Below, in pieces: positions 11,860 to 62,496 of a DNA stretch of 64,000 nt. The notes below the pieces were generated by a model. That model did not search any database. It saw nothing but the letters and a program-made list of their open reading frames with translations, and was not told the origin of the DNA. Location: assembly GCA_017439185.1 (NCBI GenBank), contig JAFRTM010000020.1:1-64000 (forward strand). The letters are read 5' to 3'. Position numbers and translations under genes: made by a program. Within the stretch, counting starts at the first letter, position 1. Each line of letters begins with the position of its first letter. This DNA is from Bacteroidales bacterium (lineage in GTDB: Bacteria; Bacteroidota; Bacteroidia; Bacteroidales; P3).

Positions 11860-12010
11860 AGTTTATATATAACGACACATTATATAATATATTGTGTGAG
11901 GTTATATTTTTTTGATAAAAAAATTAACTTTTGCGCGAGACGGGAGGGAAAGGCGTCGCTTTTGGTTGGATTGTATGTGCTTCAGGAATAGTTATATAAT
12001 AGTCTATTGG

Positions 12011-12054
12011 TTTTGCTCCCGTTTTGCTCCCCTATTGTTCCCGTTTTGGGTAAC
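12011..12054. repeat. 11-bp-period tandem array A
   Basis: Successive 11-bp units read TTTTGCTCCCG, TTTTGCTCCCC, TATTGTTCCCG and TTTTGGGTAAC. The second unit (12022-12032) is identical to the first unit of the array at 46258, 34 kb away. It belongs to the same family as the arrays at 16811, 27118, 39768, 46258 and 57798. Confidence 0.75.
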
Positions 12055-12197: not shown

Positions 12198-12222
12198 CAA
12201 AATGTTTCAGTCGTCACAGACT

Positions 12223-15200
12223 ATGAGGAGAACTACGGCCATAATTCTATTACTGTGTGCATTAACCGCCCAAACGCAACTGTGGGCACACAGCCACAGC
12301 GACACGCTCGGTATAGGGCGCAGGATAGAGTTTGTGCATAACGCAGGGCAATGGGACGAGCGGGTGAGATATGTGGCGCAGATGGGAAAGGCGGCGTTGT
12401 TTCTGGAGAACAACTCGCTGATGATAGCGGTGAGAGAGGTGGTGACGCAGAAAGAGGGCTCGCCGTTCCACCACGACATCATGGGGAGCAAGGCCCACGC
12501 CTACCGTATGACCTTCGAGGGGGCCAACGCGAGGCCCGAGATAGAGGGAGTGGGGCAGCTGCCGTCGTACAGCAACTACTACACCAGCCGCGACCCGGGG
12601 AAGTGGCGCAGTCATGTGAGGTCGTACGCCTCGGTGAACTACAGAGGGCTTTATGAGGGTATAGACCTGCATGTATATAGTGCCTCGCGGATGCTGAAAT
12701 ATGACTTTATCGTGGCGCCCAATGCCCGTCCGAGCGACATAGTGATAGCCTACGAAGGACAGGACGGACTGAAACTGCACGACGGGAACCTGACGGTGAA
12801 GACGAGTGTGACGAACATAGTGGAGGTGAAGCCGTACGCCTACCAGATAATAGGTAAAGACACGGTAGAAGTGGCGGCAGCATATAAACTGAGAAACAAG
12901 CGATTGACGTTTGAGATAGGGAACTACGACCGGCGATATCCGCTGGTGATAGACCCCCAGCTGTATTTTTCGACCTATACCGGCTCGACGGCAGACAACT
13001 GGGGTACCACGGCGACCTACGACTCGCACAAGAACACATATACGGCCGGACTGGTGTTCGCCCTCGGATACCCGACCTCAACGGGTGCCTACAGTGCGGC
13101 GTTCAGCGGAAATGTCGATGTGGGAATCTTCAAGTTCGACACCACGGGCAGCGAGAGGATGTATGCCACGTACCTGGGAGGCTCGTTTGCCGATATGCCC
13201 CACAGCCTTTTTGTGAACACATTTGACGAGCTGATAGTGTTCGGCACCACCGGCTCGGAGGACTTCCCGGTGACCGAAGGAGCGTTTATGACCCAATTTG
13301 TGGGAGGAGAAGAAATATCGTATATAGACTACAACAGCTATTACCACCACATGTACTATCCCACGGGGAGCGACATCTTCGTGAGCCGGTTCAGCAGTGA
13401 CGGCACGCAGTTGCTCGCCTCGACATTTGTGGGAGGCTCGGGAAATGACGGACTCAATTACCGTTCCCGCTACAACACCAGCTATGTGACCATCATGCAG
13501 GGCAACGACTCGCTGTACTACAACTACGGCGACGGAGTGAGAGGCGAGCTGATCACCGACGACATGAACAACGTGTATGTGGGTACTACGACGATGTCGG
13601 CCGACTTTCCCGTATCGGAGAACTGCCTGCAGCCCAACCGCTGGGGGAGCCAGGACGGAGTTGTATTCAAGCTGGACTATAACCTGCAAAACCTGCTGTG
13701 GAGCACCTACCTCGGAGGAAGCGGCGACGACGCGATATACTCGATAGACGTGGACCGCGACTACAACCTGCTGGTGTGCGGCGGTACGACCTCGCACAAC
13801 TTCCCGACGACCGCGTCGGCCTATCAACCCAACTACGGAGGAGGTTCTACAGACGGATTTGTGGCAAAGATATCGTATAACGGAGACCAGCTGATGCACT
13901 CGACCTACTTCGGCTCGGACAAATATGACCAGTGCTATTTCGTGAGGACCGGCAAAAGAGACGAAGTGTTCATCTTCGGGCAGACCAAGGCCACGGGAAA
14001 CACGATGATATACAACGCCAACTACAACACCCCCGGAGCCGGGATGTTGCTGGCGAGGTTGGCCGCCAACCTTACGTCGCGAGTGTGGAGCACCGTGTTC
14101 GGCACGCCACTGGGGACGCCCAACCTCTCCCCTACCGCCTTTGCCGCCGACATCTGCAACAGGATATACGCAGCCGGCTGGGGACGAGACTTTGTGGGAT
14201 ACAACGGAGTGACCTGGGGCTCGGCCGGCACCGCCAACATGGAGGTTACGTCCAACGCATACCAAAGTCAGACCGACGGGCAGGACTTCTACATAATAAG
14301 TATGGACGAATACGCCAACGAGGTAGATTATGCCACCTTCTTCGGAGAATACCATGCGACGAGTGCCGACAGGGGAGCCGACCACGTGGACGGAGGAACC
14401 AGCCGATTCGACAAGATGAGCACCATCTACCAATCGGTATGCGGCAGCTGCGGCGGCACCAACAGCTTTCCGATAACCGACAACGCATGGTCAGCGACCA
14501 ACAACAGCTACAACTGCAACAACGCGATATTCAGGATGAATATACACAGCGACTACCCCGTGGCAGAGTTTCTGACACCGCCAGCCATCTGCTACCCCCA
14601 GTCGTACACCTTCCAAAATACCGGGCGAGGAACTTCGTACCTATGGGATTTCGGCGACGGGAGCACCTCGCATGTGACAAACCCAACGCATACATACGCA
14701 CAACCCGGCACCTATACCGTGAGACTTGTAGCCTTTTTGGAAGGAGGATGCCGAGGAACCGACACGGCGATACACGACGTGGTGGTGCTGAGCAACGGAA
14801 GCCACTCGGCCGAACCGACATACACATGCACCGCGACGCCGATACACATAGGCATCACCCCGATGCTGGGTTGCACCTACCAATGGATAAGAGGCAACGT
14901 GTCAGACCCGAGAGTGGCCAATCCCATGGTGAGCGAAAGCGGAATATATGTGCTACAGATAGACGGAGGAGTGTGCGTGGAGCTCGACACATTCGAAGTT
15001 CACTTTGTAGATTTGATAGACACCGTGCTGACCACCGACCCCAACTGTCCGGGAGGGAGCGACGGGAGAGCCCAAGCCATACTGAGCAGCGACGCCTGCC
15101 AACCGATAACCTACCAATGGGGCAGCCAGAGCAGCTCCTCGGCGACACTCACGGGGCTGCCGGCCGGGACATATCACCTGATAGTGAGCGATGCCCACTG

Positions 15201-15951
15201 CACGGCGACAAAAGACTTCAGGATAGTTGACCCACCGATAATGCAGCTGCACAAAGAGACCGTCAACGAGCTGTGCAACGACACCTGCACGGCATGGATA
15301 AGGGTGTGGAGCGAAGTGAGCGACACCGTATTGTCGAACCTCTGTCCCGGAACCTATATAGTGGAAATGGACGACAGTCACGGCTGTCCCTACTACGACA
15401 CCACAGAAGTAATCAGGGTGCAGTCGTTCAGCAATATGCACGTATGGGCCGACGACACGACGATATTCCGCACCGAGAACACCCACCTGCATGTCACAGA
15501 CCTGCCCAACAGCCGGTACAACTGGACACCGACGGAGACCTTGGGAAGCCCCTACGCGGCGAACACAGCGGCAAGACCCGAAGACACGACGATGTACTAC
15601 GTCACGGTGACAGACAGTGCCGGATGCACGTGGAGTGACAGCATACTGATAAACTGCATAGACGTAAACTGCGGCAAACCAAATGTGTTTATCCCCAACG
15701 CCTTTACCCCCAACGACGACGGGAAGAACGACAAGCTGTGTTTCTCGGGCGAGTGGATAACCGACTTCTACATCGCCATATTCTCACGCTGGGGCGAGTT
15801 GCTCTACGAGAGCCACGACCTGACCGAATGCTGGGACGGACGATACAAAGGGAACCTCTGTCTGCCGGGAGTATATGCCTACACCTGCAGGATAACCTGC
15901 GAAGCCGGATTCAAGGGAGAGTTCAAAGGAGACATAACACTGATACGATAA
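12223..15951 (+). CDS. T9SS type B secreted giant protein with SBBP and PKD repeats
   Basis: About 1,242 residues from ATG 12223; the ATG at 12202 lies on top of the predicted transcription start. Order of parts: signal peptide MRRTTAIILLLCALTAQTQ; an N-terminal domain beginning FVHNAGQWDERVRYVAQMGK; beta-propeller-like SBBP repeats (~residues 240-650) marked by STYLGGSGDDAIYSIDVD and STFVGGSGNDG; a PKD domain (LWDFGDGSTSHVTNPTHTY, ~805-845); further Ig-like domains rich in Cys; and a C-terminal gliding-motility (type B) sorting domain (~1150-1242) starting IPNAFTPNDDGKNDKLCF and ending KGDITLIR. It should be exported by Sec, cross the outer membrane through the type 9 system and stay at or beyond the cell surface, perhaps in adhesion. 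A UspA-like gene follows after 11 bp. Confidence 0.9.
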   Translation: MRRTTAIILLLCALTAQTQLWAHSHSDTLGIGRRIEFVHNAGQWDERVRYVAQMGKAALFLENNSLMIAVREVVTQKEGSPFHHDIMGSKAHAYRMTFEGANARPEIEGVGQLPSYSNYYTSRDPGKWRSHVRSYASVNYRGLYEGIDLHVYSASRMLKYDFIVAPNARPSDIVIAYEGQDGLKLHDGNLTVKTSVTNIVEVKPYAYQIIGKDTVEVAAAYKLRNKRLTFEIGNYDRRYPLVIDPQLYFSTYTGSTADNWGTTATYDSHKNTYTAGLVFALGYPTSTGAYSAAFSGNVDVGIFKFDTTGSERMYATYLGGSFADMPHSLFVNTFDELIVFGTTGSEDFPVTEGAFMTQFVGGEEISYIDYNSYYHHMYYPTGSDIFVSRFSSDGTQLLASTFVGGSGNDGLNYRSRYNTSYVTIMQGNDSLYYNYGDGVRGELITDDMNNVYVGTTTMSADFPVSENCLQPNRWGSQDGVVFKLDYNLQNLLWSTYLGGSGDDAIYSIDVDRDYNLLVCGGTTSHNFPTTASAYQPNYGGGSTDGFVAKISYNGDQLMHSTYFGSDKYDQCYFVRTGKRDEVFIFGQTKATGNTMIYNANYNTPGAGMLLARLAANLTSRVWSTVFGTPLGTPNLSPTAFAADICNRIYAAGWGRDFVGYNGVTWGSAGTANMEVTSNAYQSQTDGQDFYIISMDEYANEVDYATFFGEYHATSADRGADHVDGGTSRFDKMSTIYQSVCGSCGGTNSFPITDNAWSATNNSYNCNNAIFRMNIHSDYPVAEFLTPPAICYPQSYTFQNTGRGTSYLWDFGDGSTSHVTNPTHTYAQPGTYTVRLVAFLEGGCRGTDTAIHDVVVLSNGSHSAEPTYTCTATPIHIGITPMLGCTYQWIRGNVSDPRVANPMVSESGIYVLQIDGGVCVELDTFEVHFVDLIDTVLTTDPNCPGGSDGRAQAILSSDACQPITYQWGSQSSSSATLTGLPAGTYHLIVSDAHCTATKDFRIVDPPIMQLHKETVNELCNDTCTAWIRVWSEVSDTVLSNLCPGTYIVEMDDSHGCPYYDTTEVIRVQSFSNMHVWADDTTIFRTENTHLHVTDLPNSRYNWTPTETLGSPYAANTAARPEDTTMYYVTVTDSAGCTWSDSILINCIDVNCGKPNVFIPNAFTPNDDGKNDKLCFSGEWITDFYIAIFSRWGELLYESHDLTECWDGRYKGNLCLPGVYAYTCRITCEAGFKGEFKGDITLIR

Positions 15952-16799: not shown

Positions 16800-16810
16800 C
16801 GGCAGAAAAT

Positions 16811-16854
16811 CACCTAGCACTCAACTAGGACACAACTAGGACACAACTAGGACA
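16811..16854. repeat. 11-bp-period tandem array B
   Basis: One degenerate unit (CACCTAGCACT) followed by three perfect copies of CAACTAGGACA. It lies between the UspA-like gene and the terminator at 16881. On the minus strand the repeated core reads TAGTTG, the GTTG core shared with the other 11-bp arrays. Confidence 0.85.
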
Positions 16855-26263: not shown

Positions 26264-27070
26264 ATGAAAAACATACTCCTGATAAACGATGTTGTTGGCG
26301 GCAGCCACGTTGGAATGTGTGCCATGCTTCCGATTCTGACAAAGATGGGGCACAGCGTATTCAACTTGCCGACGGCATTGGTATCAAATACATTGGACTA
26401 CGGAGATTACGAGGTGCTTGAGACCACAAAATACATGAGTGGGACAATAGAGGTGTGGAGACGTCTCGGATTTTCGTTTGACGGAGTTATAACCGGGCTA
26501 ATGTTCAGTCCCCAGCAAGCGGCAGTGGTGAGAGAATACTGCAGGGAATTGAGAAACCAGGGCGCATTTATAATGGTTGACCCAATAATGGGAGACGGCG
26601 GAAGACCTTATAACGGAATTGGGGAGACCCAGATGAAGTTGATGCGGCAAATGATGGAGGTTTGTGACCTTGCCGTTCCCAACCTTACCGAGGCGTGTCT
26701 GCTTGCTGGAGTTCCGTATAAAAATGAGGGATTCAACAAATGCGAATTGATTGATATCCAACAGCGTATTCATAGACTTGGAGCCGAATCAATAGTTATC
26801 ACGTCAGCTCTGATGGACGGCAAAAACTGTGTATCGGTAAGCGGATGGGACTGCTGCTGGAATGTGCCGTATAAGCAGTTGCCTGCGGCATTTCACGGCA
26901 CCGGGGATATTTTTTCGGCTTTGCTGTTAGGAAGCCTAATGTCGGGTAAGGCATTGCGCGAGGCCACAGAGTATGCCATAAGCGTGGTCAGCAGTCTTAT
27001 AGAACGGAATATGGGACAGCAGGATCCTTGCCGGGGAATACCGATAGAGGCTTGTCTGGATTTGATTTGA
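26264..27070 (+). CDS. pyridoxal/pyridoxamine kinase-like protein
   Basis: 268 residues of the PdxK/PdxY branch of the ribokinase fold. INDVVGGSHVGMCAMLPIL (~7-26) binds substrate, VDPIMGDGGRPYNG (~105) is the middle signature, VPNLTEACLLAG (~137) precedes the nucleotide site, and FHGTGDIFSALLLG (~210) carries the anion hole and catalytic Asp. It would phosphorylate pyridoxal or pyridoxamine in B6 salvage, using ATP. A hydroxymethylpyrimidine kinase role is less likely. It ends at the 11-bp array C. Confidence 0.82.
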   Translation: MKNILLINDVVGGSHVGMCAMLPILTKMGHSVFNLPTALVSNTLDYGDYEVLETTKYMSGTIEVWRRLGFSFDGVITGLMFSPQQAAVVREYCRELRNQGAFIMVDPIMGDGGRPYNGIGETQMKLMRQMMEVCDLAVPNLTEACLLAGVPYKNEGFNKCELIDIQQRIHRLGAESIVITSALMDGKNCVSVSGWDCCWNVPYKQLPAAFHGTGDIFSALLLGSLMSGKALREATEYAISVVSSLIERNMGQQDPCRGIPIEACLDLI

Positions 27071-27117
27071 CAAAATTGGGTTTATTGGTGCCAAAAGCCA
27101 TCGTGGAGTTCCTCCAC

Positions 27118-27216
27118 ATTTGCTCCATAGTTGGTCCATGGTTGAGATATGGTTGATATATGTTTGATTCATGTTTTGGCCGTGGCATATAGGAGGCATA
27201 TAGGAGGCACATTCGA
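27118..27216. repeat. 11-bp-period tandem array C (nine units)
   Basis: Nine consecutive 11-bp units. They include GGTTGAGATAT then GGTTGATATAT (27140-27161) and two identical GGCATATAGGA units (27184-27205). The units drift gradually along the array, so neighbours are most alike. It fills the gap between two convergent genes and contains no ORF of note. It is the longest clear example of the 11-bp family in the window. Confidence 0.88.
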
Positions 27217-27248
27217 TATTTATTCGGGAGGATAAAGTGAAGGTTTGG

Positions 27249-27276
27249 TTGTAAAATATAAGACTTTATTTTACAA
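27249..27276. terminator. AT-only hairpin at the convergent junction
   Basis: TTGTAAAATA (27249-27258) pairs perfectly with TATTTTACAA (27267-27276). The right arm covers the mtaB stop codon. It is a plausible weak terminator for mtaB, but an A/T stem is a poor intrinsic terminator. Confidence 0.4.
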
Positions 27277-28516
27277 TATTGTCTTCGGTTATGATGGCGG
27301 AGGTTATGGTGTTTGGTGTGGCGGAAGAAGTTGCGGTGCTGAGACGTATGTAGTTGTCTGTATAGCCATAGAGTTGCCCATCATGGTCTGTATGTTCCCA
27401 AAGGACTGGCCGGGAGGAGCCGATCTGGGAGCGATGGAAGGCGAGGAGAAGTTCGTCCGACAGGAGATGAAGGAGATTTGAGCGGCGATGCTGTTCCTGG
27501 GGAGGGATGGCAGGTTTTATCTTGAGAGCGGCAGTGTTTGGCCGTTGGGAGTATGTGAAAACGTGGAGGTAGGAAATAGGAATAGAGTGGAGAAAGGCGA
27601 TGCTGTCTTCAAAATCCTGAGGACTTTCGCCGTTGAAAGCCGCAATAATATCGGCCGCAATGCAGGCATGCGGCATCGCCTGCTTTATGGAGAGAATGAG
27701 ACGGGAGTATTCTGCAGTAGTATAACGGCGGCGCATAAGACGGAGAGTGTTGTCATTGGCCGCCTGAAGGGGGATATGGAAATGAGGCATGAAGGCGCGC
27801 GACCGGGCCACAAATTCAACCATCTTTGGGGTAAGCAGATTGGGTTCTATGCTGCTAATACGGTAACGAGGGATAGAAGTTTCGTTGTCAAGAATCTTCA
27901 AGAGGTCGAGTAGCGACTCACCGCGTTCCTGACCGAATGTACCGGTGTTGACTCCAGTAAGTACAATCTCATTGATACCAGACTGAGCGATGCGGTTAGC
28001 CGCCTGGAGGACTTGGTCGATGGTGGCGCTGTGGGCCCGCCCTCGAGCGAATGGGATGGCGCAATAGGAGCAAAAATAGTCACATCCATCCTGAATTTTA
28101 AGGAAGGCACGAGTGCGCTGTTCGAGGTTGTAAGCGATTGGGAAGATGCCGTCCTGGTGGTGTTTGGCAGGGAACTGCGCTGACTGCAGGATATAATCGG
28201 GCAAGAGATGTTTCGAGTCGTTCGGCAAGACTTTTTCCACACCAGGAATTAGGGAAAGAGTGCTAGCCGCGAGAGTGGCATAGCATCCTATTATAAAAAT
28301 CTTGGCATTGGGATTAAGCCGGTGAGCCGAATGAATAGCCGTGCGGCATTTGCGTTCGGCGGTGGATGTAACAGTGCAGGTGTTTATGACATAGAAATCA
28401 GCCGGAGCCGGCCATTCGACAACGGAAAAACAATCACGGGGTAACTGAGCGAGGAGATGTGCAGTCTCGGCAAAATTAAGTTTACACCCAAGAGTGTGAG
28501 CGGCTAATGTAAACAT
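27266..28516 (-). CDS. mtaB: tRNA t6A37 methylthiotransferase MtaB
   Basis: 416 residues from ATG 28516. Radical-SAM MiaB-like enzyme that methylthiolates t6A at position 37 of ANN-decoding tRNAs. UPF0004 domain at the N-terminus (AAHTLGCKLNFAETAHLLAQ, with Cys at INTCTVT and IIGCYAT) binds the auxiliary cluster. The SAM cluster motif is DGCDYFCSYCAIPFARG (~145), and a TRAM-like C-terminus follows. An upstream TTG at 28537 would also be in frame but lies at the stop of the previous gene and adds a non-conserved stretch. It follows the MORN gene closely, so they are probably cotranscribed. Confidence 0.92.
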   Translation of the reverse strand: MFTLAAHTLGCKLNFAETAHLLAQLPRDCFSVVEWPAPADFYVINTCTVTSTAERKCRTAIHSAHRLNPNAKIFIIGCYATLAASTLSLIPGVEKVLPNDSKHLLPDYILQSAQFPAKHHQDGIFPIAYNLEQRTRAFLKIQDGCDYFCSYCAIPFARGRAHSATIDQVLQAANRIAQSGINEIVLTGVNTGTFGQERGESLLDLLKILDNETSIPRYRISSIEPNLLTPKMVEFVARSRAFMPHFHIPLQAANDNTLRLMRRRYTTAEYSRLILSIKQAMPHACIAADIIAAFNGESPQDFEDSIAFLHSIPISYLHVFTYSQRPNTAALKIKPAIPPQEQHRRSNLLHLLSDELLLAFHRSQIGSSRPVLWEHTDHDGQLYGYTDNYIRLSTATSSATPNTITSAIITEDNIVK

Positions 28517-39760: not shown

Positions 39761-39768
39761 CAAAGATA
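39761..39768 (-). promoter_or_regulatory. -7 box for the TPR gene
   Basis: CAAAGATA on the plus strand is TATCTTTG on the minus strand, 47 bp before the TPR start. The upstream promoter region is occupied by the 11-bp array starting at 39768. Confidence 0.6.
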
Positions 39769-39866
39769 TGGTTGAGACGTGTTTGCTATATGTTTTCTTA
39801 ATTGCAGGTTAATATCAACTTAATATCAAGTTCGTGTTTCGTTCGTGTTTTGTTTATGTCGGGAAC
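39768..39866. repeat. 11-bp-period tandem array D (nine units)
   Basis: Units in 11-bp register include ATATCAACTTA then ATATCAAGTTC (39812-39833) and GTGTTTCGTTC then GTGTTTTGTTT (39834-39855). It fills the gap between the ctp stop (39871) and the TPR promoter, so it covers the place where upstream promoter elements would be. Confidence 0.75.
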
Positions 39867-44106: not shown

Positions 44107-44114
44107 GTTATTCT

Positions 44115-44170
44115 AATTGAAAATTGAGAATTGAAAATTGAAAATTGTGACCTGTGAACCGTGAACTGAG
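44115..44170. repeat. 7-bp-period array between pyrB and pyrI
   Basis: Eight heptamers in register: AATTGAA, AATTGAG, AATTGAA, AATTGAA, AATTGTG, ACCTGTG, AACCGTG, AACTGAG. It fills nearly the whole spacer, so the repeat replaces any normal ribosome-binding context for pyrI. Similar heptamer arrays lie at 47295 and 56203. Confidence 0.8.
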
Positions 44171-46193: not shown

Positions 46194-46257
46194 ATTCCTT
46201 ATTATATACATATCTATATTATATATAGTCTCCACAGCTTATATCTGACTCTACTCC

Positions 46258-46378
46258 TTTTGCTCCCCTTTTGCTCTCCTTCTGTTCACCTTTTGTGCAA
46301 CAACCACATTACTACTACCATTAACCAACCATTAACCAACCTTTACTCAACCTTTAACCAACCTTTAACCGTTCCACT
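46258..46378. repeat. 11-bp-period tandem array E, entering the dus 3' end
   Basis: Eleven units in 11-bp register. It begins TTTTGCTCCCC, TTTTGCTCTCC (46258-46279) and ends ACCAACCATTA, ACCAACCTTTA, CTCAACCTTTA, ACCAACCTTTA, ACCGTTCCACT (46324-46378). The first unit is identical to a unit of array A. The right-hand units lie inside dus and encode its last residues LKVG, the stop codon included (46354-46356). Confidence 0.85.
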
Positions 46379-47289
46379 TCCTGTTCCACTCCTTTTTTGA
46401 ACTCTTCGTAGCCTTCGAGCCGCAGGAGTTCCCTTGCGCGGCTTTCCACGACGCCCAAACTCCTGTAAGCCAAGCACCAATACTCCTTCATCTTGCGCAC
46501 ACGGGGTTGGTCGGCGGGGAAGACACGGACAATCTCGTCCATCAAGTCCTGCACCATGTCGGCAGCCCTTTTGCGGCTGTCGCACTCCTCGCCTCTTATC
46601 TTCAACGGCAGGGAGGGATCGTAGAGGACTCCGCGGCCAATCATGACGTCATGTACGCCGAAGCGTTGGACAATGGAGTTGTAATCCTCGGCGGTGCAGA
46701 TGTCGCCATTGTATATGACCTTGTGGCGCAAGCGTTTGAGGCATTCGCCGAAGCGCTGAAGGTCGGGGGTTCCGCCATACTGCTGCTTGCCCGTTCGGGG
46801 ATGGATGGTGACGCTCTTCAGGTCGTAGGCGTTGAGGACGTCTATCACCCTTTCCGACTCGTCGCCGCTTCGGTGCCCGATCCTCATCTTCACGCTCAAA
46901 GCCACTCCCACCCTCGCGGTGACGTAGCGCAAGACCTCGTCGATCTCGTCGGGGAAAGGGAGTATGCCGCTGCCACGGTGCTTGGCGGCCACCCGCCGCA
47001 TGGGGCAGCCGATATTCCAATTGACTTCGTCGTAGCCCAACTTCTGCAAACCTTCCGCCATCACCACAAACTCTTCCTTTTCCTTGCCCAAGAGCTGCGG
47101 CACCACCCGCATGCTTCCCACGTTGTTCTCGGGCAGGACGTCGTCCAACTGCTCGTCGCTCGCCACCGTGCCGTGGGTCAGCGACAGGAACGGCGACACC
47201 GCATAGTCCAACGCCTTGGGGAAATGCCGCTCATAGACTCTACGGAAGAGCACTTCGGTCAATCCCTGCATTGGGGCGAGAATGAGCAT
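46354..47289 (-). CDS. dus: tRNA-dihydrouridine synthase
   Basis: 311 residues, FMN TIM-barrel. APMQGLTEVLFRRVYER at the N-terminus, EVNWNIGCPMRRVAAKHRG (~92) with the catalytic Cys, KMRIGHRSG (~145), TIHPRTGKQQYGG (~172), and GRGVLYDPSL. It reduces uridines in tRNA D-loops. The last codons lie in the 11-bp array E, so the C-terminal tail ERLKVG is set by repeat sequence. A 7-bp array precedes it. Confidence 0.95.
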   Translation of the reverse strand: MLILAPMQGLTEVLFRRVYERHFPKALDYAVSPFLSLTHGTVASDEQLDDVLPENNVGSMRVVPQLLGKEKEEFVVMAEGLQKLGYDEVNWNIGCPMRRVAAKHRGSGILPFPDEIDEVLRYVTARVGVALSVKMRIGHRSGDESERVIDVLNAYDLKSVTIHPRTGKQQYGGTPDLQRFGECLKRLRHKVIYNGDICTAEDYNSIVQRFGVHDVMIGRGVLYDPSLPLKIRGEECDSRKRAADMVQDLMDEIVRVFPADQPRVRKMKEYWCLAYRSLGVVESRARELLRLEGYEEFKKGVEQEVERLKVG

Positions 47290-47294
47290 GGGAG

Positions 47295-47357
47295 AGTTTT
47301 GAGTTTTAAGTTTTGAGTTATGAGTTATGAGTTCTAAGTTGTGAGTTATAAACTGAC
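47295..47357. repeat. 7-bp-period array upstream of dus
   Basis: Nine heptamers: AGTTTTG, AGTTTTA, AGTTTTG, AGTTATG twice, AGTTCTA, AGTTGTG, AGTTATA, AACTGAC. The same unit set and order (AGTTATG twice, AGTTCTA, AGTTATA) recurs at 56203. It fills the gap between FKBP (ends 47360) and dus (starts 47289). Confidence 0.88.
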
Positions 47358-53782: not shown

Positions 53783-56200
53783 ATGAAAAAGATAACGCTT
53801 ACAATGGCAACGCTTCTCTTGCCCTTTTTAACATTTGCAAGCGAAGCAGACCTCGCAATGCCGCAAGGCTTTGCCTCCTCGCCCGACGCACAAATCCTCT
53901 ATTGGGGCTTTGCCATCGTCATCTTGGGACTCATCTTCGGCTTTTGGCAGTTCCTGCGGGTGCGCAAACTCAAAGCCCACTCCTCGATGTTGGAAATCGG
54001 CAACGTGATTTTCAAGACCTGCTCGACCTATCTCCGTCAGCAGGGCAAGTTCCTCATCCTCCTCTTCCTCTTCATCGGTGCAGCCATAGCGCTCTATTTC
54101 GGCGTACTCAGCCACATGCCTTTCGGCAGCGTGATGCTCGTCTTGGCGTGGACCGTGGTGGGAATCCTCGGCTCCTACGGCGTGGCATGGTTCGGGGTGC
54201 GTATGAACACCTACGCCAACGCCCGCATGGCTTTCGCCTCCCTCAGGCGTAAACCCCTCGACCTCCTCAACATACCCCTGCGTGCAGGCATGTCGATAGG
54301 CATAGTCCTCATCTGCGTAGAACTCGTGCTGATGCTCGTCATCCTGATGTTCATGCCCGAGAACCTTGCAGGCAGCTGCTTCATAGGCTTCGCCATCGGC
54401 GAGAGCCTCGGCGCCTCCGCCCTCCGCATCGCAGGCGGCATCTTCACCAAGATTGCCGACATCGGAAGCGACCTCATGAAGGTGGTCTTCAAGATTGGGG
54501 AGGATGACCCCCGCAATCCGGGGGTCATCGCCGACTGCACAGGCGACAATGCAGGCGACAGCATCGGACCCACCGCCGACGGTTTCGAGACCTACGGCGT
54601 CACGGGCGTCGCCCTCGTCTCCTTCATACTCCTCGCCGTACCCGACCTCGACATGCAGGTGAAACTCCTCGTGTGGATTTTCGTCATGCGTATCCTCGGC
54701 ATCATCGCCTCCGTCCTCGCCTACTACATCAACGGCGCCATCGCCAAGGCTAAATACAACCGTGCCGACGACATCAACTTCGAGGCACCCCTCACCTCTC
54801 TCGTGTGGATTACCTCCATCCTCAGCATCTGCGGCACCTTCCTCGCCTCCTACTTCATCCTCAACACCGCCTCGGTCAACGCCCTCGTACCCAACCTGTG
54901 GCTCGCCCTGAGCATCATCATCTCCTGCGGCACCCTCGGCGCTGCGCTCATCCCCGAGTTCACCAAACTCTTCACCTCCCCCACCTCCAAGCACGTCAAA
55001 GAGGTGGTCAAAGCCTCCGAGCAGGGCGGCGCTTCGCTCAACATACTCAGCGGTCTCGTGGCAGGCAACATGGGCGGCTTTTGGACGGGTCTCGTCTTCT
55101 TCGTCCTCATGGTGATAGCCTACTTCGCCTCCACCGCCTTCAACATCGAGCCCGTCTTCGGCGTCTATTATAGCATATTCGCCTTCGGTCTCGTAGCCTT
55201 CGGCATGTTGGGCATGGGTCCCGTCACCATCGCGGTAGATTCCTACGGTCCCGTCACCGACAACGCACAGAGCGTCTATGAGCTCTCCCTCATCGAGGAC
55301 GACATCGAGAAGACCACCCGCGAGGTCGAGAGCGAGTTCGGATTCAAGCCCGACTTCGAAAAAGCCAAGTACTACCTCGAAGCCAACGACGGAGCAGGCA
55401 ACACCTTCAAGGCAACCGCCAAGCCCGTCCTCATAGGCACCGCCGTCGTAGGCGCCACCACCATGATTTTCTCCCTCATCCTCATGATTCAGAAGACCCT
55501 CGACATCGAGCCCTCCACCATCCTCAACCTCCTCAACCCCTACTCCATCCTCGGCTTCATCCTCGGCGGCTGCGTCATCTTTTGGTTCACGGGCGCAAGC
55601 ATGCAGGCTGTCACCACAGGCGCCAACCGTGCCGTGGAGTATATCAAGCAGAACATCAAGCTCGACCCCAACGCTCCCAAGAAAGCCGACACCGCCAAGT
55701 CGCAGGAAGTCGTCAAGATATGCACCAACTACGCTCAGCGCGGCATGATAAACATCTTCATCGCCATCTTCTGCTTCGCCCTCGCCTTCGCCTGCCTCTC
55801 CTCCCCCGCCTCCATCGGCGGCAACAACGCCGTGTGCCTCTTCATCTCCTACCTCATCGCCATCGCCGTCTTCGGTCTCTTCCAAGCCGTCTTCATGGCT
55901 AACGCAGGCGGCGCTTGGGACAACGCCAAGAAGGTCGTCGAGGTCGATATGAAAGCCAAGGGAACACCCCTCCACGACGCCTCCGTGGTCGGCGACACCG
56001 TCGGAGACCCCTTCAAGGACACCTCCTCCGTGGCACTCAACCCCATCATCAAGTTCACCACCCTCTTCGGCGTCCTCGCCATGGAGATAGCCATCAGCGA
56101 AGGCTTCCGCAACATCGCACCCTACGTAGGCATTGCGCTCCTCCTCGTGGCTCTCTTCTTCGTCTACCGCTCCTTCTACGGCATGAGGATTAAGAAGTGA
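53783..56200 (+). CDS. hppA: membrane-bound pyrophosphatase
   Basis: 805 residues, about 16 TM helices. PPi and Mg sites: EDDPRNPGVIADCTGDNAGD (~235-255), DGFETYGVTGVAL, GPVTDNAQSVYELS (~490) and GDTVGDPFKDTSSVALNPI (~735). It hydrolyses pyrophosphate and pumps H+ and/or Na+ across the inner membrane. Bacteroidota homologues include Na+- or Na+/H+-pumping types; this cannot be settled by eye. Its coding strand is strongly C-rich at third positions. It ends directly before the 7-bp array at 56203. Confidence 0.97.
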   Translation: MKKITLTMATLLLPFLTFASEADLAMPQGFASSPDAQILYWGFAIVILGLIFGFWQFLRVRKLKAHSSMLEIGNVIFKTCSTYLRQQGKFLILLFLFIGAAIALYFGVLSHMPFGSVMLVLAWTVVGILGSYGVAWFGVRMNTYANARMAFASLRRKPLDLLNIPLRAGMSIGIVLICVELVLMLVILMFMPENLAGSCFIGFAIGESLGASALRIAGGIFTKIADIGSDLMKVVFKIGEDDPRNPGVIADCTGDNAGDSIGPTADGFETYGVTGVALVSFILLAVPDLDMQVKLLVWIFVMRILGIIASVLAYYINGAIAKAKYNRADDINFEAPLTSLVWITSILSICGTFLASYFILNTASVNALVPNLWLALSIIISCGTLGAALIPEFTKLFTSPTSKHVKEVVKASEQGGASLNILSGLVAGNMGGFWTGLVFFVLMVIAYFASTAFNIEPVFGVYYSIFAFGLVAFGMLGMGPVTIAVDSYGPVTDNAQSVYELSLIEDDIEKTTREVESEFGFKPDFEKAKYYLEANDGAGNTFKATAKPVLIGTAVVGATTMIFSLILMIQKTLDIEPSTILNLLNPYSILGFILGGCVIFWFTGASMQAVTTGANRAVEYIKQNIKLDPNAPKKADTAKSQEVVKICTNYAQRGMINIFIAIFCFALAFACLSSPASIGGNNAVCLFISYLIAIAVFGLFQAVFMANAGGAWDNAKKVVEVDMKAKGTPLHDASVVGDTVGDPFKDTSSVALNPIIKFTTLFGVLAMEIAISEGFRNIAPYVGIALLLVALFFVYRSFYGMRIKK

Positions 56201-56202
56201 AG

Positions 56203-56244
56203 AGTCATAAGTTATGAGTTATGAGTTTTGAGTTCTAAGTTATA
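56203..56244. repeat. 7-bp-period array after hppA
   Basis: Six heptamers: AGTCATA, AGTTATG twice, AGTTTTG, AGTTCTA, AGTTATA. It begins 3 bp after the hppA stop. Unit composition and order match those at 47295, about 8.9 kb away. Confidence 0.88.
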
Positions 56245-56263
56245 AGAAAATTGAAAATAGAGA

Positions 56264-56298
56264 AAGGGAGAGCCGATAAGGGTTCTCCCTTCTTTTTT
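56264..56298 (+). terminator. intrinsic terminator of hppA
   Basis: AAGGGAGAGCC pairs with GGTTCTCCCTT (one wobble) around GATAAG, followed by CTTTTTTG. A good rho-independent terminator. Confidence 0.9.
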
Positions 56299-56303
56299 GC
56301 CCC

Positions 56304-56348
56304 TTAGACCAATTAGACCTATTAGTCCTATTAGACCTATTAGTCCTA
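56304..56348. repeat. 9-bp-period array
   Basis: Five 9-bp units: TTAGACCAA, TTAGACCTA, TTAGTCCTA, TTAGACCTA, TTAGTCCTA. It lies between the hppA terminator and the DUF6266 3' remnant, whose TAG stop is in the last unit. Confidence 0.88.
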
Positions 56349-56366
56349 TTCAGCCACGAAGAAGTT
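56346..56366 (-). pseudogene. 3' remnant of a DUF6266 gene
   Basis: On the minus strand this reads KNFFVAE then TAG, copying the last codons (VNFFVAE, TGA) of the DUF6266 gene at 56424. The similarity stops after about seven codons, where a long perfect hairpin begins. It looks like a leftover from recombination or duplication among DUF6266 genes. Confidence 0.55.
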
Positions 56367-57754: not shown

Positions 57755-58202
57755 AATGATGTAAATTATTAAGTTATTATATTTATTCCTTATTGTAGGT
57801 TGGGTGCATGTTGGGTGCAGGTTGCTTGGTGGTTGGGTGGTGGTTTATTATAAATATACAACATTTTTTTGAAATTCCAAAATTTTTTTTAATTTTTTTT
57901 AGGAGTACATACTTTAACTTCATGTACTAAAGAAGATAAAATATTCATGTCATGTCATGTATAGTTTCGTTAAGATGTTTTTTATATTATATTAGTAGTT
58001 ATGGAGAAGGACTTATACATGAAGTACCTTACGCCTTGTGGATACAAGACATGTCATGGAAGGTTTTTTCTTTTTCAGCTGAGGTGACTAAAGCTAAAGG
58101 ATGTTAAAAAACCTTAAATTTTAGTGTTTCTTTTTCAAAGTGTGGTAAGTATGTTGTATATTTTGCCTATCTGAAAAAAAACGAACTTAAACGAAGAAAA
58201 CT
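57755..58202. other. AT-rich intergenic region with array F and small inverted repeats
   Basis: It starts with array F (57798-57841). The rest is AT-rich and carries three CATGT steps in tandem (57944-57959), plus an inverted repeat ACTTCATGTA/TACATGAAGT (57917-57926 and 58016-58025). A 28-codon ORF from ATG 58001 (MEKDLYMKYLTPCGYK) ends at a TGA near 58085 and could be a leader peptide. No clear TAnnTTTG box precedes the gene at 58203. Confidence 0.45.
57798..57841. repeat. 11-bp-period tandem array F
   Basis: Units GTTGGGTGCAT, GTTGGGTGCAG, GTTGCTTGGTG and GTTGGGTGGTG. It lies just upstream of the frameshifted gene's start (57754, leftward). The GTTGG core matches arrays C and E (minus strand). 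Confidence 0.85.
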
Positions 58203-59545: not shown

Positions 59546-62496
59546 TGGCGGTAGGCGGGAGTGAGGCTTATGTAGCGGTCGTAGAAGAGGAGCGAGACGG
59601 GGTCGTCGGTGTTGTCGGAAGTCCAATAGGAGCCGTAGTCGTTGGGGTAGGTTATGGCGGTGCCCACTCTCCATCCCGAGGCGGGAAGGAAGAGGCATCC
59701 GCGGTTTTCCAACTCCTCGAACTCGAGGGAGGTGAAGAAGTTGTCGTCGAAGTAGTAGGTGTCGTCGTTGATGCCTTCGGGCACGGCGATGCTGTCGGGG
59801 TGCTCATAGGTGTCGGGGAAGACGATGAGTCCCTGCACCTCGCCCACCGTAGCCTTCACGTAGCGTGGGTTGACGATGCCTTCGAGGTTGGAGGCGGTGG
59901 GGCGGTGGAAGAGGAGGTATTGCCATTCGGCAGCGGAGAGGGTGCGCCACAGACCCGCACGGTTGCCTCCGTTGGTGATGGCGTTGAAGACGCCCCAATC
60001 GGCATAGGCGTTGGAGTCTGTGAGGCTTGCGGTGGAGTCGGCGGCGACGTAGTAGTCGGCGGCTGCCGTGGAGGTGTCGTTGGGGAGGTAGGCGGTGGCG
60101 CCGCTGTTCCATCCCGAGGTGCCGTAGCCGAAGAGGTCGAACATGCCGTGGCGGTAGTGGTCGCCGAAGTCCTCGCCCACATAGTCGGTCTGCACGTTGG
60201 CGAAGCGGAAGTAGCCCTGTTGGGACTCGCCTGTGGCGGTGGCGTGGGAGCGTGTGGGGGTGAACTGCAGGTTGCCGCGGGAGAAGTGTACCCTGTGGTC
60301 GGGAGCGACGGAGAAGAGGGAGGCGAGGCTTCCGAGGCTGTCGAAACTATGGCATTCCTGAGTATAGACGACGACTTCGGGGCTGTAGGCTACGCCGAGG
60401 GGGTTGGCGGCGTAGGCGCGTACGTGGTAGGCGGTGTTGGGTTGAAGCCCTTGGAGGCAGACCCATGTCCATCCCGTGTCGGGAGTGTTGGCTATGTGTT
60501 CGCCGTCGAGGGTGGGGTTGGGCAGGGTGTCCCAACAGATGCCTCGCATGGAGATGGGGAGTTCGCCGTCGTCGCTGACGGTGTATTTGAGGTTGATGGC
60601 GCTCCACCCCGTCGTGAACGTGGTGTCGCAGATGAGGGTCTGTGGGAGAGTGCCGATGGCAATGTTGTAGTCCTGCACGAGGCGCACGGAGAAACCGAGG
60701 TGGCGCTTGAACTGACCCGTCGAGAGCCAATCGTCCCCGAAACCCACATGGTAGCTGAACTCGTCGTAGTCCTCCTTGCCGCGGTTAGCCGAGGCATAGC
60801 GTCCCTGAACGCCCACTTGATAGATGAGGACGTTGGAGCGGTAGCCTGCGGCAGGTATGAACACGCAGCCTGCCGCCTCCATGAGCACCCACTGCTCGAG
60901 GGGATAGAGGTTGTCGGTATAGGAGATGTCGCGGGTGTTCACGCTCACGGGTTCGGGCACCCCTACGGGGTGGAAATAGGAGTCGGGAAAGAGGATGACC
61001 CCCTGCATATCGCCCACCGTAGCCTTCACGTAACGGGGGTTGCTCACGTTGGTGAGGTTGGAGTAGGTGGAACGGTAGTAGAGTACCTCCCACCACTCGC
61101 GCATGAGGAGGGTGCGCCACAGCCCCGCTTGGTTGCCCCCGTTCGAGATGGCGTTGAAGATGCCCCAATCGGCAAAACGGTAGGGACCAATCATCTCGTT
61201 GTCGGGGTCGCCGTTGATGTAGTAGAGGCTGTCGTCAACTGAACTGTCATAGGGATGGTAGTTCTCGGTACCGCCGCTCCATCCGCTTGTGCCCCACGCA
61301 AAGAGGTCTATATATCCGTTGTAGTTGGGTGCCATGTTGGAGTTGTCGCTGCCGATGCAGTCGGCTTGGTTGGCGGCAAAGCGCCAAGTGCCGCTCAGAG
61401 TGCCGCCCGCAGCCACTGCGTGAGAGCCCGAGGCGGAATACTGCAGGTTGCCGATGGAGAAGCGCACAAAGAATCCGTTGCCGATGGAGAAGAGGTTGTT
61501 GGAGGCTCCGATGGCGTTGAAGCCGCCCGCAGGGGTCACTATGTGGCGCACGTTGCCGTAGGCTGTGTCTGTAGCGTTGACGGCGAAGGCACGGTAATGG
61601 TACACATTGCCCGCCGCAAGCCCTTCTATCTCGCAGAGGAACTGCCCGAGACCCCCTTGCGACTCCACCACATTGTCGTCGAGGGTGGGCTCACGATGGC
61701 TCGCCCAACAGATGCCCCGCTTCACGATGGAGGAGCCCCCGTCGATGGCCACCCTGCCGAAGCAACGGGCATAGTCGGCAGCGAGCGAGTCGATGGCGCC
61801 CGTGACAGCGGTGAGGTCGGTGCTCACGAACTCGAGGACTATGAGAGCGTCGGTCTTCTGCGGCTGCGTCTTCATAGTGCTGTACACTATCGTATCGGCA
61901 TGGTACCACAGGGCGGTGTAGCTCAGGATGTCGTTGAGTTGGAAGACACCGCTGTTGTAAGCCTTCCTGTCAGGGACGGCTGAGGAGACAAGGGTGACGC
62001 CGAGATTGTCGCTGCCACCGCCGAGGGAGACGATTTTAGCCACATGGCGCATCTCGGGAGTGCTGACCGAGAGGAAAGCCACTCCCGCCTGCGACAACTC
62101 TACGGCGAGGGAGTAGGTGCCCTGCGAAAGGTCGAGGTCACGGTGAAGAGCCACCTTTCCGTCGGCTCTATAGACCTGCACCGTGACAGGCGAAGGCGAG
62201 GCAAGGGAGAGCAGCGTCTCGCACTTGCCGCTGAAGGGGTTGGGATAGGGTTTGGACAGGGTTGAGACAGGGACGGTAATACTTTCGATGCCCGCATTTT
62301 GGGTGTCGAGGAAAAGCGTGGTGTCGGGGTAGTCAAGGACTTGGCTCCACCCGCGAGTGCGGCTCTGCACGAGCACTTGGTCGAAGGGGTGATAGTCGCC
62401 GTTGGATGCCACCGCCGTGAACTTGACCTCCAAGGTCTGAGCTGCCACCATGGTGGCAGCCATAAAGAGAAGTAACACTAACCGTCTCATAGCCAA
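59509..62496 (-). CDS. large surface protein with two FISUMP-like modules
   Basis: 995 residues, signal peptide RRLVLLLFMAATMVAAQ. Residues ~78-160 (LSKPYPNPFSGKCETLLSLA to VAKIVSLGG) look like a T9SS type A sorting domain, but lie near the N-terminus. After that come two copies of an Fn3-like segment (KRGICWASHREPTLDDNVVE and MRGICWDTLPNPTLDGEHIA), each followed by a FISUMP-like lectin/FGE-type domain: ADWGIFNAISNGGNQAGLWR and ADWGVFNAITNGGNRAGLWR are the matching cores, both ending VRLV. The duplicated module is about 380 residues. The C-terminus RAVRLVRDE has no T9SS domain. Probably a cell-surface adhesin or carbohydrate binder. It starts 16 bp downstream of the lipoprotein gene. Confidence 0.82.
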   Translation of the reverse strand: MAMRRLVLLLFMAATMVAAQTLEVKFTAVASNGDYHPFDQVLVQSRTRGWSQVLDYPDTTLFLDTQNAGIESITVPVSTLSKPYPNPFSGKCETLLSLASPSPVTVQVYRADGKVALHRDLDLSQGTYSLAVELSQAGVAFLSVSTPEMRHVAKIVSLGGGSDNLGVTLVSSAVPDRKAYNSGVFQLNDILSYTALWYHADTIVYSTMKTQPQKTDALIVLEFVSTDLTAVTGAIDSLAADYARCFGRVAIDGGSSIVKRGICWASHREPTLDDNVVESQGGLGQFLCEIEGLAAGNVYHYRAFAVNATDTAYGNVRHIVTPAGGFNAIGASNNLFSIGNGFFVRFSIGNLQYSASGSHAVAAGGTLSGTWRFAANQADCIGSDNSNMAPNYNGYIDLFAWGTSGWSGGTENYHPYDSSVDDSLYYINGDPDNEMIGPYRFADWGIFNAISNGGNQAGLWRTLLMREWWEVLYYRSTYSNLTNVSNPRYVKATVGDMQGVILFPDSYFHPVGVPEPVSVNTRDISYTDNLYPLEQWVLMEAAGCVFIPAAGYRSNVLIYQVGVQGRYASANRGKEDYDEFSYHVGFGDDWLSTGQFKRHLGFSVRLVQDYNIAIGTLPQTLICDTTFTTGWSAINLKYTVSDDGELPISMRGICWDTLPNPTLDGEHIANTPDTGWTWVCLQGLQPNTAYHVRAYAANPLGVAYSPEVVVYTQECHSFDSLGSLASLFSVAPDHRVHFSRGNLQFTPTRSHATATGESQQGYFRFANVQTDYVGEDFGDHYRHGMFDLFGYGTSGWNSGATAYLPNDTSTAAADYYVAADSTASLTDSNAYADWGVFNAITNGGNRAGLWRTLSAAEWQYLLFHRPTASNLEGIVNPRYVKATVGEVQGLIVFPDTYEHPDSIAVPEGINDDTYYFDDNFFTSLEFEELENRGCLFLPASGWRVGTAITYPNDYGSYWTSDNTDDPVSLLFYDRYISLTPAYRHYGRAVRLVRDE

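What the first reader, a model, noticed from the sequence alone, without database searches (positions are those of the whole stretch)
27118..27216. A family of 11-bp-period degenerate tandem repeats in six intergenic regions
Seen directly: arrays at 12011-12054, 16811-16854, 27118-27216, 39768-39866, 46258-46378 and 57798-57841 all keep an 11-bp step although the units change gradually. Many units share a GTTG/TTTG core on one strand. Array A and array E, 34 kb apart, share the unit TTTTGCTCCCC exactly. 11 bp is close to one helical turn, so each unit would present the same face of DNA; or the transcript could present a regularly spaced motif to an RNA-binding protein. They occur in convergent, tandem and divergent gaps, so they do not act as one fixed type of signal. 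I know of no described repeat family with this pattern in Bacteroidota, but could not search.
Basis: partly seen in the sequence, partly recalled or inferred. Interest (0 to 1): 0.85.

Follow-up and report, generated by a model that had tools for sequence, protein, structure and literature searches.

The report
Eleven-base modular repeats between genes
Gaps between genes in this bacterium and in many of its relatives are sprinkled with repeat arrays built from 11-base bricks whose letters differ between species while the brick length stays at 11, so something other than sequence appears to be inherited.

Summary
All six arrays exist, plus a seventh. In 456 kb sampled from the same 2.15-Mb genome there are 45 intergenic period-11 arrays; periods 10, 12 and 13 gave 0, 3 and 1, and resampled sequence about 0.5. 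The arrays are not isolated: 82% of their bases recur at other intergenic sites of the sample. A search with one window array rang in 1 of 119 genus genomes, its own. Fourteen of 18 sampled same-genus genomes carry period-11 arrays (64 in 798 kb), built from other unit vocabularies whose between-genome similarity equals chance. In some species the arrays are long hairpins; one such family (23 copies) shows compensatory base changes. Between two species 88% identical in aligned DNA, arrays sit in the same gaps (8 shared, 3 expected) yet can differ by whole 11-bp units or carry another vocabulary.

Best reading: a genus-wide class of dispersed, non-autonomous intergenic repeats of minisatellite build, which spread within each genome, gain and lose whole units and are overwritten in place, so unit length is inherited while sequence is not. 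The amplifier is unknown; the usual REP transposase was not found in this genome. Helical-phase bending was tested and not supported; a protein reading one unit per turn is not excluded.

The parts
12010..12048 (.). period-11 array, 3.5 units (GTTTTGCTCCC type), divergent gap; one of 6 copies (5 close, 1 weaker) of a ~45-bp element in the 456-kb sample, which share a short flank on one side
16808..16854 (.). period-11 array of CTAGGACACAA units; partial copy of a second family (AACTAGGACAC ... AACTCTATGGT), 11 places in the sample including this one
27107..27176 (.). period-11 array, GTTGCTCCATA drifting to GTTGATATATG to TTTGATTCATG; convergent gap between a phosphomethylpyrimidine-kinase-like gene and a radical-SAM UPF0004 gene
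   Evidence: 25 matches for 27071-27265 in own genome, itself included
27182..27212 (.). continuation with GGCATATAGGA units
39764..39859 (.). period-11 array, ~9 units, begins 11 bp past the stop of an S41 peptidase gene
46254..46299 (.). period-11 array (TTTTGCTCCCC units)
   Evidence: 46240-46380 has 27 matches in own genome, itself included
46315..46370 (.). period-11 array (ACCAACCTTTA units), overlaps the last 17 bp of the dihydrouridine synthase ORF; the orthologous gap is 4 bp in relative L109
57794..57845 (.). period-11 array (AGGTTGGGTGC units), divergent gap
62233..62272 (.). further period-11 array (AGGGTTGGGAC units) not in the finding; gene context unclear

Best explanation
The arrays are members of a genus-wide class of dispersed, non-coding intergenic repeat elements built like minisatellites with an 11-bp unit. 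Shown: they recur at many intergenic sites of one genome, unit vocabularies belong to species or small clades, arrays can differ by whole 11-bp units between close species, and in some species the element is a paired hairpin. Inferred: a trans-acting process (transposition-like copying or recombination between elements) spreads the current vocabulary, local slippage adds and removes whole units, and new vocabulary replaces old units at sites that already hold an array, so unit length passes on while sequence does not. The elements are probably non-autonomous and mostly tolerated, with some families settled at 3' ends and others often in divergent gaps. What copies them is not identified.
For: Dispersal: 2430 of 2952 period-11 bases in the G000 intergenic sample recur at another intergenic site; 733 of 808, 627 of 634 and 495 of 560 in G012, G009, G016; 25 and 27 genome matches for two window arrays. 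Vocabulary: window array found in 1 of 119 genus genomes, its own; unit similarity within genomes 5.62 against 4.90 +- 0.04 permuted, between genomes 4.689 against 4.690 +- 0.009, 94 arrays. Unit dynamics: between G008 and G023 (88% identity, 143 kb of alignments) one gap shows a 33-bp and an 11-bp difference inside conserved flanks; 33 orthologous gaps, arrays in 11 and 9, shared 8, hypergeometric p 1e-4. Adjacent units are most alike. Hairpin: G009 family, 23 copies, 12 doubly changed paired cells against 3.8 +- 1.6, 0 of 500 shuffles as high. Genus-centred: 64 arrays in 798 kb of 18 same-genus genomes, 14 of 18 positive; 0 in 102 kb of the sister genus, 0 in 255 kb of other families, 15 in 1342 kb of named other Bacteroidota.
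Against: No amplifying enzyme was found; Y1 transposase (PF01797) had no match in G000, G009 and G016, at 92-100% completeness. The mosaic class to which most window arrays belong shares no common ends or flanks in the alignments, unlike typical transposed elements, and target-site duplications were not demonstrated. Beyond close species the sites are not kept: an array downstream of S41, Dus and MiaB-like orthologues in 5, 1 and 2 of 29 relatives each (the best 30 loci of 41 genomes were read), no more than some other periods gave there, e.g. period 9 in 6 of 30 for MiaB. The sharpness of 11 against 10, 12 and 13 is explained only by descent, which chance-level similarity between genomes cannot confirm. 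The covariation in G009 rests mainly on one column pair (10 of 12 doubly changed cells).
Confidence: 0.6

Rival explanations
1. The arrays are binding platforms: a DNA-binding protein binds cooperatively, one subunit per helical turn, and its specificity evolves fast, so every species has its own unit but all keep 11 bp.
For: The period is shared without shared sequence and register is kept for six or more units. In G009, identity between elements falls outward from the dyad.95.89.80.58.44.35. Bacterial genomes are said to show a ~11-bp period linked to negatively supercoiled DNA (PMC4132750; start of abstract and passages seen).
Against: No first-harmonic phase bias of G+C within units. Similarity falls with unit distance, as local duplication gives and independent selection of each unit would not. 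No candidate protein was identified or systematically sought.
Confidence: 0.2
2. They act as RNA: transcribed hairpins or terminators at gene ends; 11 bp is one turn of an A-form helix.
For: Compensatory pairing in G009; strong folds in G002, G009, G012, G022, G023 (20 of 22 arrays with z below -3); G016 element between convergent genes in 19 of 28 scored copies and never divergent, and 6 convergent, 3 tandem, 0 divergent of 9 in a contiguous sample; tandem-gap arrays nearer the upstream stop in 41 of 50.
Against: In the window's genome only 2 of 35 arrays fold with z below -3 on the better strand, in G016 0 of 6. G009 elements lie in divergent gaps in 11 of 23 cases, G023 arrays in 10 of 20, where no gene ends. 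The main window array gave z -2.9 with one choice of ends but -1.6 and -0.9 on its two strands with another. A terminator-like match at 27102-27118 is a consensus hit only.
Confidence: 0.12
3. Plain replication slippage: each array arose and drifts on its own, with no spread between sites and no function.
For: Whole-unit length differences; neighbouring units most alike.
Against: Unit vocabularies are shared between distant sites of one genome. Independent slippage would hardly choose 11 (and 7) while leaving 10, 12 and 13 nearly empty.
Confidence: 0.05
4. Chance or assembly artefact.
For: The held genomes are in large part draft assemblies in many contigs, and short tandem repeats can be misassembled.
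Against: 45 arrays against 0.5 expected; two separate genomes (G008, G023) hold near-identical arrays in two orthologous gaps.
Confidence: 0.01

Closest known systems
BrickBuilt MITE of Porphyromonas gingivalis (Klein et al. 2015, PMC4596501; abstract and passages seen)
   Same: Also Bacteroidales; intergenic only; several copies per genome; body is a head-to-tail minisatellite; copies differ in unit number.
   Different: 23-nt unit, described in one species, leader and tail segments with terminal inverted repeats, 19 copies in one strain. Here the unit is 11 bp, vocabularies change between species or clades, the mosaic window arrays have no shared ends, and arrays are more numerous (45 in about a fifth of the genome).
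REP / BIME / REPIN elements with RAYT transposases (PMC3733652 abstract and passages; PMC3116915 abstract)
   Same: Dispersed, high-copy, intergenic; some here are hairpins; the G016 family has the same preference for convergent and tandem gaps.
   Different: REPs are 20-40 bp palindromes and are linked to RAYTs. The window's genome has no Y1 transposase match, its arrays are mostly not palindromic, and the 11-bp tandem build is the defining trait here.
Genome-wide ~11-bp AT periodicity of bacteria (PMC4132750; start of abstract and passages)
   Same: The number 11.
   Different: That is a statistical phasing of A/T, in highly periodic cyanobacteria stemming mostly from coding DNA; here it is tandem sequence repetition confined to intergenic DNA, without first-harmonic G+C phasing.
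Eukaryotic satellite DNA with fixed monomer length and fast sequence turnover (recalled, not searched)
   Same: Unit length conserved, sequence species-specific.
   Different: Scale, organism, and no known chromatin link here.

Membership tests
Bacterial minisatellite / VNTR | head-to-tail units of constant length without spacers | tested here: met
Bacterial minisatellite / VNTR | unit number differs between close relatives by whole units | tested here: met
   G008/G023: a 33-bp and an 11-bp difference in one gap; seen in relatives, not in the window's own species
Bacterial minisatellite / VNTR | polymorphism among strains of one species | not testable with these tools
   one genome per species is held
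REP / BIME / REPIN | palindromic hairpin unit | tested here: not met
   window genome: 2 of 35 arrays with z below -3; met in G002, G009, G012, G022, G023, 20 of 22
REP / BIME / REPIN | RAYT / Y1 transposase in the genome | tested here: not met
   no PF01797 match in G000 (92% complete), nor in array-bearing G008, G009, G014, G016, G017; 21 of 31 genus genomes searched have one
REP / BIME / REPIN | GTAG or CGTC tag at the foot of the palindrome | not tested
   GTAG occurs in several units by eye; no count made
MITE (BrickBuilt type) | terminal inverted repeats / ends shared by the copies | tested here: inconclusive
   mosaic-class copies share no ends; the family of the 12010 array shares a short flank on one side and the 16808 family a longer one, neither checked for inverted ends; G016 copies show an outer inverted repeat by eye
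MITE (BrickBuilt type) | target-site duplication / matching transposase | not tested
   flanks inspected by eye only; only PF01797 was searched
Intrinsic terminator | G+C-rich hairpin followed by a T run at gene 3' ends | tested here: inconclusive
   in the one gap scanned, 26900-27400, one match at 27102-27118 on the minus strand and one inside the kinase gene; 0.5 +- 0.8 expected
Described RNA family | match to an Rfam model at gathering score | tested here: not met
   only a tRNA in the window

The most novel reading that the evidence does not exclude
The 11-bp step itself is the selected trait. A genus-specific machine, either a protein polymer reading one unit per helical turn or an enzyme that writes or copies 11-nt units, keeps the length while its sequence preference changes quickly, so each species or small clade rewrites its intergenic arrays in a new vocabulary at sites already occupied. 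That would be a bacterial counterpart of satellite DNA with a fixed monomer length.
Probability: 0.2. Interest if true: 0.88.

Novelty: new variant of a known kind. Interest (0 to 1): 0.62.

Why it matters
Dispersed intergenic repeats are usually recognised by their sequence. Here the sequence turns over, in several gaps even between species that are 88% identical in aligned DNA, while the unit length stays, over at least 14 sampled genomes of the genus. This makes a specific question testable: what fixes a repeat's unit length when its letters are free? It also warns that such elements are missed by homology searches and need a period scan. If a protein or enzyme fixes the length, it would be a new kind of genome-shaping system in these Bacteroidales.

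Tried and rejected
Bending or wrapping by phased G+C: not supported as a general rule (first harmonic 0.181 against 0.200). In the same test harmonics 3 and 5 of the G+C signal deviate (z 3.0 and -4.0), and harmonics 1 and 2 of purine/pyrimidine (z -2.6 and 2.4), but related arrays are not independent.

RAYT-driven REP: not supported for this genome.

Long-range conservation of sites: not found across the genus; only in the close pair.

Universal terminator: the G016 family (0 of 28 divergent) suggested it, but G009 and G023 are often in divergent gaps.

Rho-type C-rich transcripts: no sense-strand skew.

One ancestral sequence: units of different genomes are no more alike than permuted units. 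The highest pairs are mostly among the G009/G002/G022 group; the G009 element rings in 30 of 119 genus genomes, so there the vocabulary is clade-level rather than strictly species-level.

Copying between the two arms of one hairpin: arm-arm identity within elements is about that between elements in G009, apart from the covarying column. The automatic palindrome search also picked non-array palindromes in G023, G008 and G012; those rows were not used.

Covariation scan of the G016 outer inverted repeat did not find a usable register and is not used.

Papers: the literature was searched; searches returned nothing, and no title or abstract start listed by the others describes an 11-bp intergenic array class. 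Most subscription journals are not held.

Limits: gene calls are my own ORF and hexamer scripts, not a standard annotator, so gap classes carry some error and counts differ slightly between callers. Arrays containing N were dropped but not. A few of the 64 genus arrays are A/T-rich and score just over the cut-off. The 30 G016 and 23 G009 elements are among the best-scoring copies, not a random sample. In one search one locus (L211) had only 154 bp downstream.

Full report
The window is part of a 2.15-Mb genome assembly (G000, 28 contigs, 92% complete; 51% G+C in the window). Its nearest named relatives by valyl-tRNA synthetase (76-87% identical, L109-L116) are uncultured Bacteroidales, several from ruminants (Tb.RUG.96, 87%; reindeer, roe deer and yak MAGs; bacterium P3); after them identity drops to 67% and less. 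The species has no name here.

Observation. All six arrays are real. In a scan of the window with a 33-base frame, period 11 gives seven regions, period 7 three, period 9 one, and periods 8, 10, 12 and 13 none. I then took 392 kb more of the same genome. In intergenic DNA the match rate peaks at lags 11, 22, 33, 44 and 55, with no such peaks in coding DNA. A segment scan found 50 period-11 arrays, 45 of them intergenic by the ORF mask; of the other periods from 5 to 40 only 22 (22 arrays) passed 10 intergenic arrays. Against ten Markov resamples of the same intergenic sequence, 45 arrays stand against a mean of 0.5 and maximum of 2; the real numbers at periods 10, 12 and 13 are 0, 3 and 1, and at 7 and 14 they are 9 and 7. 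The 39 strongest arrays match at lags 11, 22, 33, 44, 55, 66 with .76.65.57.51.45.42; all other lags shown lie between .21 and .36. So register is kept over several units while the letters drift.

The arrays are dispersed repeats. BLAST of 27071-27265 finds 25 places and of 46240-46380 finds 27 places in the own genome, the query site included. In the own sample 2430 of 2952 period-11 intergenic bases recur at another intergenic site; in G012, G009 and G016 the figures are 733 of 808, 627 of 634 and 495 of 560. Several families exist in G000: a ~45-bp element (CAAAACGGGAG units, 6 places), a longer element of about 165 bp whose right part holds 11-mers (AACTAGGACAC ... AACTCTATGGT, 11 places), and a mosaic class in which neighbouring units share part of their letters. 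The mosaic class shows no common ends; the other two do share some flank.

Relatives. Of 18 sampled same-genus genomes 14 have at least one intergenic period-11 array, 64 in 798 kb; G006, G011, G015 and G021 have none in 20-40 kb each. The sister genus has 0 in 102 kb, other families 0 in 255 kb (some samples very small), and 72 named loci outside the genus 15 in 1342 kb. So the feature is concentrated in the genus but not confined to it.

Sequence is not what is conserved. With 94 arrays from up to 16 genomes, unit profiles of different genomes are as alike as permuted ones (mean 4.689 against 4.690 +- 0.009; mean best match 6.41 against 6.37 +- 0.05), while arrays of one genome are far more alike (5.62 against 4.90 +- 0.04). 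The window's array matched 1 of 119 genus genomes, its own. A G009 hairpin element matched 30 of 119, with about 100-140 first-look candidates in five genomes and few in many others, and 0 of 295 genomes drawn from the order. Vocabularies thus belong to species or small clades.

Structure differs by species. In G002, G009, G012, G022 and G023, 20 of 22 arrays fold with z below -3, typically an array followed by its reverse complement; in G000 it is 2 of 35 and in G016 0 of 6. For G009, 23 copies align without gaps to a 28-bp stem. One column pair shows four pair types (8, 5, 3, 2, with 5 unpaired) and carries 10 of the 12 doubly changed cells; shuffles give 3.8 +- 1.6 and slid structures 0-1. 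Identity between copies falls outward from the dyad.95 to .35 over six units. In G016, 30 aligned copies show, by eye, about five 11-bp units enclosed by an outer inverted repeat; the first look gave 238 candidates genome-wide, of which 40 were scored.

Placement also differs. G016 copies: 19 convergent, 9 tandem, 0 divergent of 28 scored (2 more at contig edges), and 6, 3 and 0 of 9 in a contiguous 100-kb sample. G009: 11 divergent, 11 tandem, 1 convergent of 23; G023: 10 divergent, 8 tandem, 1 convergent, 1 in a called gene, of 20. In tandem gaps pooled over 12 genomes, 41 of 50 arrays lie nearer the upstream stop (p 6e-6), which may only reflect avoidance of promoters.

Turnover. Across the genus the sites are not kept: 5, 1 and 2 of 29 relatives have an array downstream of the S41, Dus and MiaB-like orthologues, no more than some other periods gave there. 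In the close pair G008/G023 (88% identity, 143 kb of alignments), 33 orthologous gaps of 60 bp or more were compared: 11 and 9 hold arrays, 8 in common (p 1e-4). By eye, of the eight, two are near-identical, three carry different units, and three are mixed. One gap shows a 33-bp and an 11-bp difference in conserved flanks, i.e. three units and one unit. One G008 element has the G023-type core with another unit type outside it on one arm. In L109 the gap between the Dus and TPR genes is 4 bp, against 118 bp by ORF bounds, largely arrays, in the window.

Mechanism. Shown: dispersal, whole-unit change, difference of vocabulary in the same gap, pairing in one family. Inferred: a copying process acting in trans, plus slippage. 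The decline of similarity with unit distance favours local duplication. What copies the elements is unknown: Y1 transposase (PF01797) had no match in G000 and in five other array-bearing genomes, G008, G009, G014, G016 and G017; other transposase families were not searched. No first-harmonic G+C phasing was found. A cooperative protein remains possible.

Verdict. A real, genus-wide class of intergenic minisatellite-type repeats with fixed unit length and replaceable sequence; nearest in kind are BrickBuilt and REP elements. In the window's genome it fails two defining features of REPs, and MITE ends are unproven. The chief open question is what fixes the number 11.

Noticed in passing
window 44114-44166, 47293-47347, 56179-56264: A second class of arrays with a 7-bp unit (AATTGAA, GAGTTAT/GAGTTTT). 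In relatives 7-bp arrays are as common as 11-bp ones (75 against 64 in 798 kb), and they also occur in other Bacteroidota (33 in 1342 kb).
   Followed up: partly
window 56304-56350: 9-bp array TTAGACCTA, 5.2 copies, near a 7-bp array.
   Followed up: no
C25 of the own genome, loci L009-L020, e.g. 61271-61360 and 106832-106921: A ~165-bp dispersed element with conserved TTTTTTTGAT and TAGGTATCAACTCTATGG; in 5 of the 9 aligned copies it points to a gene start 184-352 bp away, before unrelated genes (pyrH-like, purD-like, peptidase by eye).
   Followed up: partly
G023 C13:25640-25860 and G008 C10:33650-33880: A whole array gap is virtually identical between two species whose aligned DNA averages 88%: recent transfer or strong constraint.
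   Followed up: no
own-genome arrays: A small ridge of similarity at lags 7, 18, 29, 40, 51 (7 modulo 11), and an excess of the third harmonic of the G+C signal, hint at a 4+7 or 4-4-3 sub-structure of the unit.
   Followed up: no
L153 321-374 and 21866-21919; L185 9714-9825; L119 17133-17189: Period-11 arrays also in a few Bacteroidota MAGs outside the genus, one of them with inverted parts by eye.
   Followed up: no
window 12202-15951: 1249-aa gene with homologues in all 24 other genus genomes of the search; in some relatives its upstream gap also holds a period-11 array (L031, L032, L043, L044, L047).
   Followed up: partly
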